A stretch of 64,000 bases of DNA, taken from assembly GCF_002305875.1 (NCBI RefSeq), contig NZ_CP022098.1:9052001-9116000 (forward strand), read 5' to 3'. The position numbers and the translations under genes were made by a program. This stretch comes from Cystobacter fuscus. GTDB lineage: Bacteria; Myxococcota; Myxococcia; Myxococcales; Myxococcaceae. The notes below the pieces were generated by a model that saw nothing but the letters and a program-made list of their open reading frames with translations, was not told where the DNA came from and ran no database searches. Shown here piece by piece: positions 4,438-46,588 of the stretch. Within the stretch, counting starts at the first letter, position 1. Each line of letters begins with the position of its first letter.

Positions 4438-6114
4438 GGGTCTTCGGTACGTCGAGTGGGCAGGACTGTCGACAAGAGGCCGTGCGCATGGGGAGGACAT
4501 GGGGCTCAAGGGCGTGCGGAGCCGAGCGATGGCCATGGGATTCAAGTCCCCGCGAGAGTTCGAGGCATGAATGAGACAGGGGCACGACCTGGGGTGCCGA
4601 AAGCCGCAGCCGTGCATGACAGAGCGCCTGGCTCCGCTGCCCTACTGGCCGGGTTGCAGTCGAATCTGTCGGCGCTGCGGGGCTCGGTCCCCAGCCGCCT
4701 GCTTCTACGGCGAGGGGCTATGCCGCTACTGGCAACGGCGGAGTGAACTCCATGCCCCCGCAGCACAGCAGTATCATCGCCCTGAATGCCTTGGGATTGC
4801 GGAAGCCATAGGCGCGGCGGCTGAGGGCTCGAATCTTGTTGTTGATTCCCTCCACCACTCCGTTGCTCAGTCCCGTCTCCACGTAGGCGAGAATGCCGTC
4901 CTTGTGCCGCTGGACTGTCTTCGCCAGCTTCGCGAAGGGGGCGAGCCTGGAGTGGCTGGCCCATTGACACCACTTGTCCAGGTGCTCCGAGGCTCGCTTG
5001 GGCTGCACGTAGTCCATGCCCCGTGCCAGGCTTTCCTTGAGCAGATAGGCCCGGTAGAGCGTCTGGTTCGTCTTCTTCAACTCGCTGAGCTTCTCTCCCT
5101 GGCGCACCGTCAGGTTCCACGGATTCTTCAGCAACGCCCAGCGGCTCTGTTTGAGCGCCTTTCCCTCCTGGCTCCCCGCCTGCTCGCGCACCTCTTGCCG
5201 GCGCACCGTATCCAGCGCTTCGTTCGCCAGCTTCTGCACGTGGAACCGGTCGAACACCTTGCGCACATGTGGGGCACGGTTGCCCACCGCCTTGCTGAAG
5301 GCCGCCGACAGGTCCATCGTCGCGTGCGTCAACTCCTTCGTCCTCTCCTCTCCCAGCTCGTCGAAGAAGGCGTCCAGGGTCTCTTCGTTCTTCCCCTCTC
5401 CCACCCAGACGACTCGCGAGCGCAGGTGGTCCACCACCAGGCTCACGTACTTGTGCCCGGCTTTCCAGCCCAGCTCGTCCACTCCAATGATTTGCAACCC
5501 CTCCAGGCGGCCTGGCGACAGGCGCTCCTCGACAATGCGCTCGATGATGGTGCCCACCGTGCGCCAGTTGATGCCCAGCAGCCGGCAGATGGAGGACTTG
5601 TCCAGGCGTTGCGCCTGCCAGGCCACCAGCTCCTCGAAGGCCCGCGTGAAGCTCGAGTCGTGCGCCGCCCAGGCCACCCGCTCCACTCTCACCCCATGCT
5701 CGCGGCAGTGCACACGGCGCGGGGCGTAATGCAGCCAGAAGATGGTTTGTCCCAGCGCCAGGTGCCGCCACAACCGCCCAGGGCTCGCGTCGTAGCCGGG
5801 GGCGGGCCGGCCGCACACTCCGCAGCGAGGCTTGCGCTGGCGCGGGCGCACCTCCACCACCACTCCCTTGGCCTCCAGCCGGGCCCCTTGCACACTCAGC
5901 CCCTGGATGCGCAACACCCGCCCCAGCACCTCTCGCAGCCTTGGCCCCGCCACGCCCCGCCTCCCCCTCCAGCACCCCGGGGGCGGCACGTATTGCAACT
6001 CCGCGACCTGGTCTCTTCCCAGAGCGACAGCCTCTATCGGCTTCTCGCTCCCCATCTCTCATCGGAGACCCTCCCGTCCACGGCGGGAACGCCCATTTCG
6101 GCTACAGAAGATCC
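4438..6114 (-). mobile_element. ISL3-family insertion sequence, copy 1 (1677 bp)
   Basis: The ends are imperfect inverted repeats: GGGTCTTCGGTA at the left, and the complement of GGATCTTCTGTA at the right. The length equals copy 2 (31961-33637), with two visible base differences (4611 C versus T, 5788 C versus T). The flanking 8-mers differ (AATCTTCG at 4430-4437, ATTTTCCT at 6115-6122), so there is no target duplication, unlike copy 2. A gene on the right side is truncated. Together these suggest recombination between IS copies or an adjacent deletion. About 280 bp inside the left end carries no supported gene. Confidence 0.92.
4718..6055 (-). CDS. ISL3-family transposase (copy 1)
   Basis: A 445-residue transposase of normal ISL3 length. 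An N-terminal zinc-ribbon-like CGVCG (about 78-82) is followed by an HTH region and the DDE catalytic domain. Candidate catalytic residues are Asp193 (GVDELGWK), Asp248 (ATMDLS) and Glu402 (VVEGINNKIRAL), the last in the conserved C-terminal block with RRAYGFRN. It differs from copy 2 by Ala90 versus Thr90. The frame is intact, so the element may be mobile. Family assignment is confident. Confidence 0.94.
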   Translation of the reverse strand: MGSEKPIEAVALGRDQVAELQYVPPPGCWRGRRGVAGPRLREVLGRVLRIQGLSVQGARLEAKGVVVEVRPRQRKPRCGVCGRPAPGYDASPGRLWRHLALGQTIFWLHYAPRRVHCREHGVRVERVAWAAHDSSFTRAFEELVAWQAQRLDKSSICRLLGINWRTVGTIIERIVEERLSPGRLEGLQIIGVDELGWKAGHKYVSLVVDHLRSRVVWVGEGKNEETLDAFFDELGEERTKELTHATMDLSAAFSKAVGNRAPHVRKVFDRFHVQKLANEALDTVRRQEVREQAGSQEGKALKQSRWALLKNPWNLTVRQGEKLSELKKTNQTLYRAYLLKESLARGMDYVQPKRASEHLDKWCQWASHSRLAPFAKLAKTVQRHKDGILAYVETGLSNGVVEGINNKIRALSRRAYGFRNPKAFRAMILLCCGGMEFTPPLPVAA

Positions 6115-31960: not shown

Positions 31961-33637
31961 GGGTCTTCGGTACGTCGAGTGGGCAGGACTGTCGACAAGA
32001 GGCCGTGCGCATGGGGAGGACATGGGGCTCAAGGGCGTGCGGAGCCGAGCGATGGCCATGGGATTCAAGTCCCCGCGAGAGTTCGAGGCATGAATGAGAC
32101 AGGGGCACGACCTGGGGTGCCGAAAGCCGCAGCTGTGCATGACAGAGCGCCTGGCTCCGCTGCCCTACTGGCCGGGTTGCAGTCGAATCTGTCGGCGCTG
32201 CGGGGCTCGGTCCCCAGCCGCCTGCTTCTACGGCGAGGGGCTATGCCGCTACTGGCAACGGCGGAGTGAACTCCATGCCCCCGCAGCACAGCAGTATCAT
32301 CGCCCTGAATGCCTTGGGATTGCGGAAGCCATAGGCGCGGCGGCTGAGGGCTCGAATCTTGTTGTTGATTCCCTCCACCACTCCGTTGCTCAGTCCCGTC
32401 TCCACGTAGGCGAGAATGCCGTCCTTGTGCCGCTGGACTGTCTTCGCCAGCTTCGCGAAGGGGGCGAGCCTGGAGTGGCTGGCCCATTGACACCACTTGT
32501 CCAGGTGCTCCGAGGCTCGCTTGGGCTGCACGTAGTCCATGCCCCGTGCCAGGCTTTCCTTGAGCAGATAGGCCCGGTAGAGCGTCTGGTTCGTCTTCTT
32601 CAACTCGCTGAGCTTCTCTCCCTGGCGCACCGTCAGGTTCCACGGATTCTTCAGCAACGCCCAGCGGCTCTGTTTGAGCGCCTTTCCCTCCTGGCTCCCC
32701 GCCTGCTCGCGCACCTCTTGCCGGCGCACCGTATCCAGCGCTTCGTTCGCCAGCTTCTGCACGTGGAACCGGTCGAACACCTTGCGCACATGTGGGGCAC
32801 GGTTGCCCACCGCCTTGCTGAAGGCCGCCGACAGGTCCATCGTCGCGTGCGTCAACTCCTTCGTCCTCTCCTCTCCCAGCTCGTCGAAGAAGGCGTCCAG
32901 GGTCTCTTCGTTCTTCCCCTCTCCCACCCAGACGACTCGCGAGCGCAGGTGGTCCACCACCAGGCTCACGTACTTGTGCCCGGCTTTCCAGCCCAGCTCG
33001 TCCACTCCAATGATTTGCAACCCCTCCAGGCGGCCTGGCGACAGGCGCTCCTCGACAATGCGCTCGATGATGGTGCCCACCGTGCGCCAGTTGATGCCCA
33101 GCAGCCGGCAGATGGAGGACTTGTCCAGGCGTTGCGCCTGCCAGGCCACCAGCTCCTCGAAGGCCCGCGTGAAGCTCGAGTCGTGCGCCGCCCAGGCCAC
33201 CCGCTCCACTCTCACCCCATGCTCGCGGCAGTGCACACGGCGCGGGGCGTAATGCAGCCAGAAGATGGTTTGTCCCAGCGCCAGGTGCCGCCACAACCGC
33301 CCAGGGCTCGTGTCGTAGCCGGGGGCGGGCCGGCCGCACACTCCGCAGCGAGGCTTGCGCTGGCGCGGGCGCACCTCCACCACCACTCCCTTGGCCTCCA
33401 GCCGGGCCCCTTGCACACTCAGCCCCTGGATGCGCAACACCCGCCCCAGCACCTCTCGCAGCCTTGGCCCCGCCACGCCCCGCCTCCCCCTCCAGCACCC
33501 CGGGGGCGGCACGTATTGCAACTCCGCGACCTGGTCTCTTCCCAGAGCGACAGCCTCTATCGGCTTCTCGCTCCCCATCTCTCATCGGAGACCCTCCCGT
33601 CCACGGCGGGAACGCCCATTTCGGCTACAGAAGATCC
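31961..33637 (-). mobile_element. ISL3-family insertion sequence, copy 2 (1677 bp)
   Basis: Same ends as copy 1 (GGGTCTTCGGTA, complement of GGATCTTCTGTA). It is flanked by a perfect 8-bp target duplication ACTTTTCT (31953-31960 and 33638-33645), as expected for ISL3. It has inserted in the Rhs gene between the hydrophobic region and the linker. Removing it restores MEQKSGALGEL in frame. The duplication shows a simple, fairly recent transposition. It lies in the same orientation as copy 1, forming a direct repeat about 27.5 kb apart. Confidence 0.96.
32241..33578 (-). CDS. ISL3-family transposase (copy 2)
   Basis: Identical to the copy 1 transposase except Thr90 for Ala90. Candidate catalytic residues Asp193, Asp248 and Glu402 and the CGVCG finger are kept. 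The frame is intact, so this copy may be the active source, consistent with its clean target duplication. Confidence 0.94.
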   Translation of the reverse strand: MGSEKPIEAVALGRDQVAELQYVPPPGCWRGRRGVAGPRLREVLGRVLRIQGLSVQGARLEAKGVVVEVRPRQRKPRCGVCGRPAPGYDTSPGRLWRHLALGQTIFWLHYAPRRVHCREHGVRVERVAWAAHDSSFTRAFEELVAWQAQRLDKSSICRLLGINWRTVGTIIERIVEERLSPGRLEGLQIIGVDELGWKAGHKYVSLVVDHLRSRVVWVGEGKNEETLDAFFDELGEERTKELTHATMDLSAAFSKAVGNRAPHVRKVFDRFHVQKLANEALDTVRRQEVREQAGSQEGKALKQSRWALLKNPWNLTVRQGEKLSELKKTNQTLYRAYLLKESLARGMDYVQPKRASEHLDKWCQWASHSRLAPFAKLAKTVQRHKDGILAYVETGLSNGVVEGINNKIRALSRRAYGFRNPKAFRAMILLCCGGMEFTPPLPVAA

Positions 33638-42145: not shown

Positions 42146-42934
42146 ATGAATCCCCCACAAGACATTCCCACGCACGTGGCCCCCGCAGTCGCGCGCTACA
42201 CGGACGCCGTCGTGAAGCGACTCCAGGCCGTGCTCGGCGACGCGCTGCTGGGCGTCTACCTCATCGGCTCGAACAGCCTGGGGGGGTATGAAGCCGGACC
42301 GAGCGACATCGACCTCATCGCCATCTGCGCTCGGCCCGTGGAGCTCGCGACGAAAGAGGCCCTCGCGAGGGAGCTGGATCACCGCGCCCTGCCCTGTCCC
42401 GCCCGGGGCCTGGAGTTCGTCCTGTACCCCAAGGACACCGTCTCGCGGCCGACCCCGAGCCCCCGCTTCGAGCTGAACCTCAACACCGGCGCCGGAATGG
42501 GCCACCGGTTCACCGTCCGCCCGGAAGACGAGTCCCCGCACTGGTTCGTCATCGACCTCGACATCGCCCGCCAGCACGGGGTGAGACTGGCCGGACCGCC
42601 CGCCAACGAGCTGCTCGCACCCCAGGACAAGCGCTGGGTGCTCGACGCCATCCGCACCTCGCTCGCGTGGCACTCGCGGGAGGAGCCGGCGAGCGCCAAC
42701 AACGTGCTCAACGCCTGCCGGGCCTGGCGGTATGCCGAGGAGGGCGTATGGAGCACCAAACTGGCCGCGGCCACATGGGCCCGGGAGCGGCTGGAGGAGC
42801 CGTCCCTCATCGATGCCGCACTCGCCACTCGGCGGGGTCAACCCGGCCCCGCGCTGACCCCGGAGGCAGTGCACGCCCTGGTGCAACGGGTTCTCCGCGT
42901 CGTCGAGCGCGCCATGCCCCGAGACAACCCATGA
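42146..42934 (+). CDS. Aminoglycoside nucleotidyltransferase-like protein (AadA/DUF4111 type)
   Basis: A 262-residue protein. The nucleotidyltransferase motif is GSNSLGGYEAGPSDIDLI (41-58), with the metal Asp54 and Asp56. The C-terminal helical DUF4111-like domain has NNVLNACRAWRY...WSTKLAAATWA as in ANT(3'')(9) enzymes. ATG 42146 has an AGGAGGACG site. It may adenylylate streptomycin/spectinomycin-like aminoglycosides; chromosomal relatives often have no proven resistance role. It is divergent from the sulfide regulon and convergent with the lanthipeptide genes. Confidence 0.78.
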   Translation: MNPPQDIPTHVAPAVARYTDAVVKRLQAVLGDALLGVYLIGSNSLGGYEAGPSDIDLIAICARPVELATKEALARELDHRALPCPARGLEFVLYPKDTVSRPTPSPRFELNLNTGAGMGHRFTVRPEDESPHWFVIDLDIARQHGVRLAGPPANELLAPQDKRWVLDAIRTSLAWHSREEPASANNVLNACRAWRYAEEGVWSTKLAAATWARERLEEPSLIDAALATRRGQPGPALTPEAVHALVQRVLRVVERAMPRDNP

Positions 42935-42939
42935 AGACG

Positions 42940-42975
42940 AGGGGCCTGGAACTCCCGAGGGAATTCCAGGCCCCT
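42940..42975. terminator. Bidirectional hairpin terminator
   Basis: An inverted repeat AGGGGCCTGGAA / TTCCAGGCCCCTT with a 12-base loop lies 5 bp after the nucleotidyltransferase stop and before the convergent LanA gene. The stem of about 12 bp is perfect; the T-tract is short. Confidence 0.7.
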
Positions 42976-43019
42976 TCGTGCCCGGACCGGCTACCCGCCG
43001 GGCACCTCACCACGATGAC

Positions 43020-43232
43020 TCAGTAGCAGTACTTCGGAGGACACGGCGTGCAGTAGGCCGACGTGGGCTCCAGGATGCCGCCCCCCGTCACGGACTCCAG
43101 AACGCTGTCGTCCAGGGCAAAGGCGGACGCCGGGTTGGCGGGCAGCGCGGCACGCTCCTCCGCCGACAGGCTGTTGAAGTACTCGGGGTCACGCCAGGCA
43201 CGGAGGATATGCTCGGTGTTCGACTTGCTCAT
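43020..43232 (-). CDS. lanA: Class II lanthipeptide precursor (mersacidin-like leader)
   Basis: A 70-residue precursor. The leader (MSKSNTEHILRAWRDPEYF, then LPANPASAFALDDSVLESVTGG) has the NPA and ExVTGG pattern of mersacidin/lichenicidin-type leaders and ends in a double Gly. The predicted core is GILEPTSAYCTPCPPKYCY. It contains three Ser/Thr and three Cys, all Ser/Thr lying before at least one Cys, so up to three (methyl)lanthionine rings are possible. The start overlaps the LanM stop by ATGA, so LanM precedes LanA, the reverse of the usual order. No product family is recognised. Confidence 0.88.
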   Translation of the reverse strand: MSKSNTEHILRAWRDPEYFNSLSAEERAALPANPASAFALDDSVLESVTGGGILEPTSAYCTPCPPKYCY

Positions 43233-46200
43233 GGGGGCTCTCCCTTGGATGGGGGTTGGATCCTCGACTGCTCCGAATGCCGCCAACCCTTCGGCTTCGG
43301 AATCGTGTGGCCCGGCGGCGCGAGCGCGAGCAGGGAAGGCAGGCGTTCCGGCGCGGCCAGACGCGCCAGCCCGTAGCCGATGCCCGCGAGCCCCACCATG
43401 AGCCCCGGCGTCTCGATGTTGCGTTGCAGCCCGAAGAGGCAGCCCCGCTCGTCCAGGACGCGCAGCACCGTGCGGGCCCGCTGGTAGACCTGATGCTCCA
43501 GCGCCTCGTCTCCCAGGACGCGCGCCGCCTCCAGGAGGAAATCCAGGTTGCCCAGGTCGCCATGGCACAGGGAGTGGTTCTGGCCGAAACCGCCCGCGAG
43601 CGTCGTGGCCACGGCGTGGGCGAGCTCCTCGCGCACCCGGGCATCGTCATACATGGGCAGCCCCGACAGCCGCGCCAGACCGATGCCCGGCGCGCCATGG
43701 CACCACGCGGTCATGAAGTGCATCCCACCGCCATGCGGCCCCGCCAGCTCGGCGGCGCCCGCGCGCAGATCCGGCCAGTTGCGCTCCGCGGCGGAGAACA
43801 GCCCCCGCTCGAACTCGATGCCCTCGCGCGCCATCCGGCCGAAGCGCTCGTCGCCCGTGGCCGCCGCGAGCCGCAGCAGCGCCAGGCTGATGCCCGCGGC
43901 GCCGTGGGACATTCCCGCCAGGGCGAGCTGTCCCGCCAGCGGCACCACCCACCCCATGCCCCGCTCCTGGCGCCGGGCGGAGTCGAGCAGGCGCTCTCCA
44001 CAGGCGCGGGCGGCCTTCCACAGCAGCTCCGACGGCCGGTGCTCCGCGAGCGTGAGCAGGGCGATGAGGCACCCCGCCGAGCCCACGCCCAGGTCGAGCA
44101 TCTCATCGCGCTCGATCAGCGCCGGCAGCCGCTCCAGATAGTGCTCGGCCCTGTCCAGCGTCCGCGCGTCCGCCCACAGCACGCCCAGGTGCGTGAGTCC
44201 GTAGAGGACGCCGCCCCAGCCATTGAGCAGGCCCAGTCCCCGTACCTGGGAGGCATCCAGTTCGATCTGATGCTCCTGGGCGCACAGGGCCATCCGGGCG
44301 GTGCGGGTGAAGGACTCCTCGCCCGTGGCGGCCCCCAGGTAGCCGAGGAACAGGGCGATGCCCCCCAGCCCCTGGTAGAGATCGGCCCCCGCGTGCGCGA
44401 GCTGCCATCCGCCCGCATCGGCGTAGTCGAGCGTCAACCAGTGGGCCTCCTCCGGTCCACGGAGGCTCAACCCCACGAGCTTCTCCCCGATGCGCCGGGC
44501 CGCCGCGAGCAACTCCTCCCTCCCCGCGCGCTCGCCCGGCTCCGGGACCGGATAGGAGGGACGCTCGCCACCCGGCTCCCCCAGGCGCAGCGCATCGAGC
44601 GCGCGGTGGATGATCCAACGCTGGCGTTCGAGATCCTCGTCGGACAGGAGCGCCACCCGGCGCCGCACGCGCTCCAGACCAGGAGTCTCCAGGAAATCCT
44701 CCAGGCGCGCCCCCGAGCTCGTCCAGACGTGCCGCGTGCCGGGCAGGGTCGTGAACAGGGGGACGTCTCCGCGCAGGAGATCCTCGAGCTCGAAGGGAAT
44801 CAGGGACGCCAGGAAGGGGCGCTCCACGGCGCCCTTCCAGAGGTGCTCGAGGAAGCACTGACGCTCCAGGGCATCCCCGAGCGCATGGGGATGGAAGCTC
44901 TCGAGCAACAGGGAGCCATAGACGGACGTGTGGCGGAAGACGACCCGCACCGGCGCCTCCGCGAACGCCGCGAGGGGCCCGTCCCCGGCGAGCAGCGCCT
45001 CTCGCCGCCGCAGCAGCAGGCGGTACATGCGCGAGAAGCCCTCGGACAACGCGTCGGCGTAGTCGAGCAGCGAGGCGTCCACCCCCTCCAGGCGCGGACG
45101 GTTGTGGGAGCCGGGGACCTCCACCTGGCGGCGCTCGAACCGCATGCGATCCGTGCCCCGCTCGACCGGCATGAGGAAGGCCTGGGGAGTGAGCTGCCCG
45201 GCGCTGGAACCGAGGCCACTGATGTCCACCCCGGGGCGCTCCCGGGTGCCCCAGGTGCGTTGGGGCAGCAGCCCGCTCTTGAGCACCGACTCCCCGAGGG
45301 GCGCTCCCGGATGGCGCTCGGTGTCCCGCTGTTCGCGCACGCGCACGGGGGGATGGAAGAGCGTCTCGAGGTCCACCAGCACGGGGTGCTCGCCGGAGGC
45401 GATCAGGTTCTCGTGATGGAAATCGGTGGCGTCGAGCACGTACAGCAGGGCGATGAAGCCGCCCTGGCGCAGATAGAAGCGGCGCACCTCCTCGGCCGAG
45501 GAACAGGGGGCCGGGGTCACGAACTCCACCCAGCCGTGGTCTCCGCGGTCGAGCACCTCGAGGGTGCGCGGGGCGGGCTCGAGGCCCTGCTGCGCCAACC
45601 AGGACAGGAGCCGCTGGAAGGCGGCCTCGGTGGCGAGGGACCTGGGCTTGTAGACCAGGCGCGTGCCCGACTCGAAGCGCAGCAGGAAGACACCCCGGCC
45701 ACCCCGGTGGGAGTCCGAGACTCCGCCTTCGGCTTCCACCAGCCGGCCCAACGGCACGCCTCCCGAGAAGCGGCGCTGGAGCTCCGGCGCGTCCTCGCGG
45801 AAGTGGCGCAGCAGCTCCACCCCCGCGCGCTCCCAGTGGGCGATGCACTCGACGAGCTGACGGGCCAGGACGGGGTAGCGCGCCAGGATCTCCAGGGCCA
45901 CCTCGCGTCGGCGCAGGGAGTGGGCGAAGTCCTGGAAGCGCGCCCGCGGCGTGTCGCCCGTGAGCCGCTCCTGCAACTGCGCCGCGTGCAACTCCACGAC
46001 GAGGGTCCGGCTGAGCAACGGAGTCAGCAGCGTGGGCAGATGGCCCAGCAGCTCCCGCCCGAGGGTCTCGGGCTCGAAGAGCGCCCCGGGAAACGACGTC
46101 TCGAGTTCGCCCAGTCCGCGCAGGAGACGGGCGAGGCCGCTTCGCACCAACGGCTCGGCCAGGGCGAGGAACGCGGAGCGCTCCGGCCCCCCCGCGCGCT

Positions 46201-46588
46201 CGGGCCAGGAGAAGGGCTCGGAGACGGGCTCCACGTAGGCCCGTTCGATCTCCTGGAGCCACGCGGGGGCGGACTCCATGGACGACCGCAAGGCCTCGGG
46301 GGACAGGCCCAGCAGGGAGAGGAAGTCCTCCTCGGTGAGTCCATCGGCCGCGAGCCGGCGTGTCCACCACTCCTCCCGGACGAAGGGCTCCTGCGCGCGC
46401 CAGCGTTCGGCGCGGCGACGGGCCCGCTCCCCCGCTGTCCTGACCGGGCCGCCGTGACGCCGCAGGGCAAGGATGCGCTCGCTCAGCTCGGTTCCGAGAT
46501 ACCAGCGCGAGGCAGCAGGTGTTTCCCCTCCCTTCGCGCCCTGCGCATCGGCGTCATTGTCGGAGGAGGACACGCGGGCTCCATTCAC
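43229..46588 (-). CDS. lanM: Class II lanthionine synthetase LanM
   Basis: A 1119-residue bifunctional enzyme of normal LanM length. The N-terminal dehydratase domain (about 150-650) phosphorylates and eliminates Ser/Thr; kinase-like motifs include RLVYKPRSL and DFHHENLI...PVLVDLETLF. The C-terminal cyclase (about 740-1119) has the zinc ligands WCHG (Cys963) and LCHG (Cys1008, His1009). It is followed by the precursor gene with a four-base overlap. No LanT transporter, protease or immunity gene adjoins, so export may depend on distant genes. The promoter lies in the gap to the divergent VWA gene, which holds a CGTGAAG/CTTCACG inverted repeat. Confidence 0.95.
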   Translation of the reverse strand: MNGARVSSSDNDADAQGAKGGETPAASRWYLGTELSERILALRRHGGPVRTAGERARRRAERWRAQEPFVREEWWTRRLAADGLTEEDFLSLLGLSPEALRSSMESAPAWLQEIERAYVEPVSEPFSWPERAGGPERSAFLALAEPLVRSGLARLLRGLGELETSFPGALFEPETLGRELLGHLPTLLTPLLSRTLVVELHAAQLQERLTGDTPRARFQDFAHSLRRREVALEILARYPVLARQLVECIAHWERAGVELLRHFREDAPELQRRFSGGVPLGRLVEAEGGVSDSHRGGRGVFLLRFESGTRLVYKPRSLATEAAFQRLLSWLAQQGLEPAPRTLEVLDRGDHGWVEFVTPAPCSSAEEVRRFYLRQGGFIALLYVLDATDFHHENLIASGEHPVLVDLETLFHPPVRVREQRDTERHPGAPLGESVLKSGLLPQRTWGTRERPGVDISGLGSSAGQLTPQAFLMPVERGTDRMRFERRQVEVPGSHNRPRLEGVDASLLDYADALSEGFSRMYRLLLRRREALLAGDGPLAAFAEAPVRVVFRHTSVYGSLLLESFHPHALGDALERQCFLEHLWKGAVERPFLASLIPFELEDLLRGDVPLFTTLPGTRHVWTSSGARLEDFLETPGLERVRRRVALLSDEDLERQRWIIHRALDALRLGEPGGERPSYPVPEPGERAGREELLAAARRIGEKLVGLSLRGPEEAHWLTLDYADAGGWQLAHAGADLYQGLGGIALFLGYLGAATGEESFTRTARMALCAQEHQIELDASQVRGLGLLNGWGGVLYGLTHLGVLWADARTLDRAEHYLERLPALIERDEMLDLGVGSAGCLIALLTLAEHRPSELLWKAARACGERLLDSARRQERGMGWVVPLAGQLALAGMSHGAAGISLALLRLAAATGDERFGRMAREGIEFERGLFSAAERNWPDLRAGAAELAGPHGGGMHFMTAWCHGAPGIGLARLSGLPMYDDARVREELAHAVATTLAGGFGQNHSLCHGDLGNLDFLLEAARVLGDEALEHQVYQRARTVLRVLDERGCLFGLQRNIETPGLMVGLAGIGYGLARLAAPERLPSLLALAPPGHTIPKPKGWRHSEQSRIQPPSKGEPP

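What the first reader, a model, noticed from the sequence alone, without database searches (positions are those of the whole stretch)
43020..46588. Minimal lanthipeptide locus with LanM before LanA and no transporter
A four-base ATGA overlap couples the precursor behind its synthetase. The predicted 19-residue core GILEPTSAYCTPCPPKYCY, with three Ser/Thr and three Cys, matches no lanthipeptide I know. Translational coupling would limit precursor to about enzyme level, unusual for a secreted antibiotic.
Basis: partly seen in the sequence, partly recalled or inferred. Interest (0 to 1): 0.75.

Follow-up and report, generated by a model that had tools for sequence, protein, structure and literature searches.

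The report
Ordinary lanthipeptide enzyme-precursor pair, exporter elsewhere
A myxobacterium carries a two-gene locus, one enzyme and the small peptide it ring-closes, from a peptide family shared with Myxococcus and Archangium; the missing export pump is probably supplied by one of several unlinked pumps in the same genome, so the locus is a new member of a known kind rather than a new system.

Summary
On the minus strand a complete class II lanthipeptide synthetase (LanM, 43229-46588) overlaps a 70-residue precursor (LanA, 43020-43232) by ATGA, and no exporter, protease or immunity gene was recognised nearby. The nearest C39 peptide-exporter gene is 2.4 Mb away. The precursor has a mersacidin/lichenicidin leader, and its core belongs to a family of at least 22 peptides in Cystobacter, Archangium and Myxococcus with an invariant CTPCPPxxC. 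The M. xanthus cluster of this type (MXAN_2853-2857) was published in 2012 and 2014. Myxococcus versions carry one to three precursors plus an exporter. The window and Archangium versions, and a second Myxococcus locus, do not. Six Myxococcus genomes hold two such LanM loci but only one lantibiotic-type C39 exporter, so sharing in trans is the simplest reading. The coupling argument fails: lanA has its own Shine-Dalgarno, and its Archangium orthologues sit about 92 nt beyond lanM without overlap. The pair is under purifying selection, yet a sister Cystobacter retains only a deletion scar of it and another lacks it entirely: a maintained but dispensable accessory locus. New member of a known kind; ring pattern, export and function are untested.

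The parts
43020..43232 (-). lanA: 70-aa precursor, leader MSKSNTEHILRAWRDPEYFNSLSAEERAALPANPASAFALDDSVLESVTGG, core GILEPTSAYCTPCPPKYCY
   Evidence: TIGR03898 70.1 bits; orthologues with invariant CTPCPPxxC; dN/dS about 0.25
43229..46588 (-). lanM: class II lanthipeptide synthetase, dehydratase plus cyclase
   Evidence: TIGR03897 963.4 bits; PF13575 and PF05147; LicM2 6st5 E 2e-124 and CylM 5dzt E 1.5e-49; active-site columns invariant in 14 relatives
43229..43232 (-). ATGA overlap of the lanM stop and lanA start
   Evidence: sequence; same overlap in 9 of 10 Myxococcus clade C loci fetched as 20 kb regions
43236..43247 (-). Shine-Dalgarno of lanA (aagggagag, about 7 nt before ATG)
   Evidence: sequence; GGAG-type site present at all 17 lanA junctions examined
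42935..43019 (-). strong hairpin downstream of lanA, between convergent genes; probably a shared terminator (no T-run)
   Evidence: RNA fold -56.8 kcal/mol, z -6.15; the terminator scan found no T-tailed site

Best explanation
This is a functional class II lanthipeptide biosynthetic pair. LanM recognises the mersacidin-type leader, dehydrates up to three Ser/Thr (T57, S58, T62; T62 is invariant in the family and position 58 is always Ser or Thr) and joins them to Cys (C61, C64, C69, all invariant) to give a small multi-ring peptide. The precursor is then cleaved after Gly-Gly and exported in trans by an unlinked C39-peptidase ABC exporter, most likely one of the two LanT-HlyD pairs in the same genome that have no modification enzyme beside them. 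Shown: intact conserved enzyme and precursor, purifying selection, no local exporter, unlinked exporters present, related loci with the exporter attached, and loss in sister species. Inferred: dehydration and ring pattern, export in trans, and that the product is secreted.
For: LanM and LanA family scores far above cut-offs. Dehydratase and cyclase residues are invariant in 14 relatives and aligned with LicM2/CylM. The core half with CTPCPPxxC is kept across 22 precursors with at least 3 Ser/Thr and 3 Cys each, and in a Myxococcota genome of another taxonomic family as SALCSPCPPASC. dN/dS is about 0.33 for lanM and 0.25 for lanA against Archangium at dS about 0.55. LanM tree: window + Archangium, a second Myxococcus locus, and the Myxococcus LanT-bearing locus are three fully supported groups of one clade. 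All 14 genomes with this core have C39 exporters. Six Myxococcus genomes have two LanM loci of this clade but only one strong C39 exporter, which implies sharing. The window genome has two LanT-HlyD pairs with no modification enzyme called nearby (L140, L141), the same situation reported for C. fuscus DSM 2262 in PMC3951391. In M. xanthus the related operon MXAN2855-2857 has a proposed DigR site and two genes potentially involved in lantibiotic synthesis are reduced in sgmT and digR mutants (PMC3509222).
Against: No expression, mass or export data exist for this locus. None of the window genome's C39 exporters is a one-to-one orthologue of the Myxococcus LanT (best 58% against 90-100% within Myxococcus), so the in-trans exporter is a guess among several. 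Two close relatives have lost the locus, so its product is not essential.
Confidence: 0.78

Rival explanations
1. The product is not exported at all: the modified peptide acts inside the cell or is released on lysis, so no exporter is needed.
For: No transporter, protease or immunity gene recognised beside the locus in the window or close by in either Archangium genome, nor beside the second Myxococcus locus.
Against: The double-glycine leader end (GG or GA across the family) is kept, which matters for C39 cleavage; sister loci carry LanT directly behind the precursors; exporters are present in trans in every genome with the core.
Confidence: 0.12
2. A decaying remnant: the cluster lost its exporter and is on the way to being lost altogether.
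For: A sister Cystobacter (G032) retains only a deletion scar with the lanM start and the lanA tail, and G033 lacks the locus.
Against: Both frames are intact with purifying selection at dS about 0.55 against Archangium; the exporter-less arrangement is itself shared by Cystobacter and Archangium, so it has lasted at least since their divergence or transfer.
Confidence: 0.1

Closest known systems
Myxococcus xanthus lantibiotic cluster MXAN_2853-2857 (PMC3951391, PMC3509222)
   Same: Gene order lanM then lanA(s), mersacidin-type leader, CTPCPPxxC core and ATGA overlap in the M. xanthus AM003 equivalent; Myxococcus LanM about 57% identical
   Different: Myxococcus has one to three precursors, a 70-74-aa HlyD-like membrane stub and LanT; the window has one precursor and no exporter. 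Identity of the MXAN genes with the AM003 ones is inferred from gene order
Mersacidin / lichenicidin (class II lantibiotics, TIGR03898)
   Same: Leader family and LanM class (LicM2 is the best solved relative)
   Different: Unrelated core (from general knowledge); no LanT, LanFEG or LanR genes at the locus
Second Myxococcus LanM locus (L050, L051, L053)
   Same: LanM-LanA pair without LanT, LanM 56-57% identical
   Different: Different core (e.g. CPATPTPNELTCLYTNCGRIACCR), no ATGA overlap

Membership tests
Class II lanthipeptide synthetase (LanM) | Full-length dehydratase (DUF4135) fused to LanC-like cyclase | tested here: met
   TIGR03897 963 bits; PF13575 and PF05147
Class II lanthipeptide synthetase (LanM) | Dehydratase residues and Zn ligands (Cys, Cys-His) conserved | tested here: met
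   D292/H294, K314, D389/H391/N394, D406, R548, T554, C963, C1008, H1009 invariant in 14 sequences and in regions aligned to LicM2 and CylM; their roles are from general knowledge of CylM
Mersacidin/lichenicidin-type precursor (TIGR03898) | Leader profile ending in a double-glycine site | tested here: met
   70.1 bits, profile 1-44 of 44
Lanthipeptide | Lanthionine or methyllanthionine bridges in the mature peptide | not testable with these tools
   needs expression and mass spectrometry; Ser/Thr and Cys are present
Complete type IB lantibiotic cluster | LanT (C39 ABC exporter) in the cluster | tested here: not met
   none in the window; nearest 2.4 Mb away

The most novel reading that the evidence does not exclude
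The conserved CTPCPPxxC peptide is a myxobacterial signalling or matrix-associated peptide rather than an antibiotic. It would be kept across Cystobacter, Archangium, Myxococcus and a more distant Myxococcota lineage, controlled in M. xanthus by the c-di-GMP receptor pair SgmT/DigR, and exported by a pump shared among several lanthipeptide loci.
Probability: 0.1. Interest if true: 0.55.

Novelty: new member of a known kind. Interest (0 to 1): 0.27.

Why it matters
It adds an unreported member to a small, sharply conserved peptide family in predatory myxobacteria whose product has, as far as the searched library shows, not been characterised. It also gives a clean case of lanthipeptide loci that appear to borrow an exporter. 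Mining by transporter, as in the 2014 survey, would miss such loci.

Tried and rejected
Genome-contig scan with the single LanM protein found nothing; the precursor alignment worked. A DigR-like palindrome upstream of lanM was sought in 15 loci; no site exceeded shuffled controls, so no regulatory claim is made for the window. The idea that the neighbouring aminoglycoside-nucleotidyltransferase-like gene (42176-42934; name from reading the sequence, not from a family search) is part of the locus was rejected: in Archangium its homologue lies elsewhere (about 258 kb from lanA in G007). Recent insertion in the window genome was rejected because a sister genome keeps a scar containing pieces of both genes. 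LanM hits on plasmids are distant (at best about 42%). Structure prediction was not used: the enzyme family is settled by profiles and solved relatives.

Full report
Observation. On the minus strand of the window, 43229-46588 encodes an intact 1119-residue LanM (963 bits against TIGR03897, cut-off 304) and 43020-43232 a 70-residue precursor (70 bits against TIGR03898, cut-off 23.5). The lanM stop and lanA start overlap as ATGA. No exporter, protease or immunity gene was recognised beside it. Six C39 peptidase genes exist in that genome, none in the window; the nearest is 2.44 Mb from lanM.

Family. The precursor has close relatives in the same taxonomic family. Twenty-two sequences align with an invariant CTPCPPxxC, a nearly invariant Ser at position 58 (Thr in one), and a strongly conserved leader. 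Each core has at least three Ser/Thr and three Cys. A precursor in another Myxococcota family, next to its own LanM, keeps the motif as SALCSPCPPASC. Named members include Myxococcus qinghaiensis, M. vastator and M. xanthus AM003. The M. xanthus DK1622 cluster MXAN_2853 (LanT) - 2854 - 2855/2856 (precursors) - 2857 (LanM), reported in PMC3951391, has the same gene order as the Myxococcus loci read here. The 2854-type small protein is a 70-74-residue stub that resembles the start of HlyD-type proteins. In M. xanthus a DigR site is proposed before the LanM gene, and two genes potentially involved in lantibiotic synthesis are reduced without the c-di-GMP receptor SgmT or its regulator DigR, although the LanM gene itself was not significantly changed in both mutants (PMC3509222).

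Where the exporter went. A LanM tree gives three fully supported groups within one clade: A, the window plus two Archangium genomes, no exporter nearby; B, a second Myxococcus locus with another core, no exporter nearby; C, the Myxococcus CTPCPP locus with exporter. In Archangium about 20-30 kb on either side shows no close LanT; one of the two genomes has a distant (38% identical) C39 exporter about 24 kb away. Six Myxococcus genomes (G062, G065, G075-G078) hold both B and C loci but only one strong C39 exporter, the one of locus C (in G078 it sits on a separate contig); that exporter presumably serves both. The window genome has five strong C39 exporters: one with LanB/LanC-like genes, one with a second LanM cluster, one in a locus with a radical-SAM-like gene, and two LanT-HlyD pairs with no modification enzyme called in the fetched 20 kb. 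The 2014 survey made the same remark for C. fuscus DSM 2262 and suggested such orphans process precursors encoded elsewhere. Export in trans is therefore the simplest reading, but it is inference.

Coupling. The ATGA overlap occurs in the window and in nine of the ten Myxococcus clade C loci fetched as 20 kb regions, but not in the closest relatives (gap about 92-94 nt in Archangium). At all 17 junctions examined lanA has its own GGAG-type Shine-Dalgarno. Coupling therefore need not fix the precursor at enzyme level, and several Myxococcus loci raise dosage by repeating lanA.

Selection and loss. Against Archangium, dN/dS is about 0.33 (lanM) and 0.25 (lanA) at dS about 0.55, so the exporter-less pair is maintained. 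In G032, a relative with flanks 91-94% identical, the same site holds only a scar: 60 bp of the lanM start (85%) next to the lanA tail reading PPKYCY-stop. In G033, closer still (94-96%), the neighbouring nucleotidyltransferase gene, lanA and lanM are all gone. Since the more distant G032 keeps pieces of both genes, the locus was most likely present in the common ancestor of the three and lost twice: accessory and dispensable.

Verdict. A real, probably functional class II lanthipeptide pair, a new member of a known kind. The unusual part, no local exporter, recurs in the clade and has an ordinary explanation. Mechanistic steps not shown: dehydration, ring pattern, cleavage, export and biological role.

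Noticed in passing
L047:10382-10597 and equivalents in Myxococcus loci: A 70-74-residue protein resembling only the N-terminal membrane segment of HlyD adaptors sits between lanA and lanT, where other clusters have a full-length adaptor; PMC3951391 listed the apparent M. xanthus equivalent as a hypothetical peptide.
   Followed up: partly
G003, G004, G007 (Archangium-like genomes; e.g. L076): These genomes carry 9-14 mersacidin-type precursors scattered over the genome but, where counted (G004, G007), only a few LanM, reminiscent of prochlorosin-like one-enzyme-many-substrates systems.
   Followed up: no
L054 (window genome 1484000-1503999): Second lanthipeptide cluster of the same genome: 58-aa precursor, LanT, LanM plus a glycosyltransferase-like and an FAD-oxidase-like gene, suggesting extra tailoring.
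   Followed up: no
window 4718-5929 and 32241-33452: Two nearly identical 403-aa transposase-like genes about 27.5 kb apart in the same orientation.
   Followed up: no
L052:9486-10267: Truncated LanM remnant (cyclase end only) still followed by a precursor gene in a Myxococcus genome that also has an intact paralogue.
   Followed up: no
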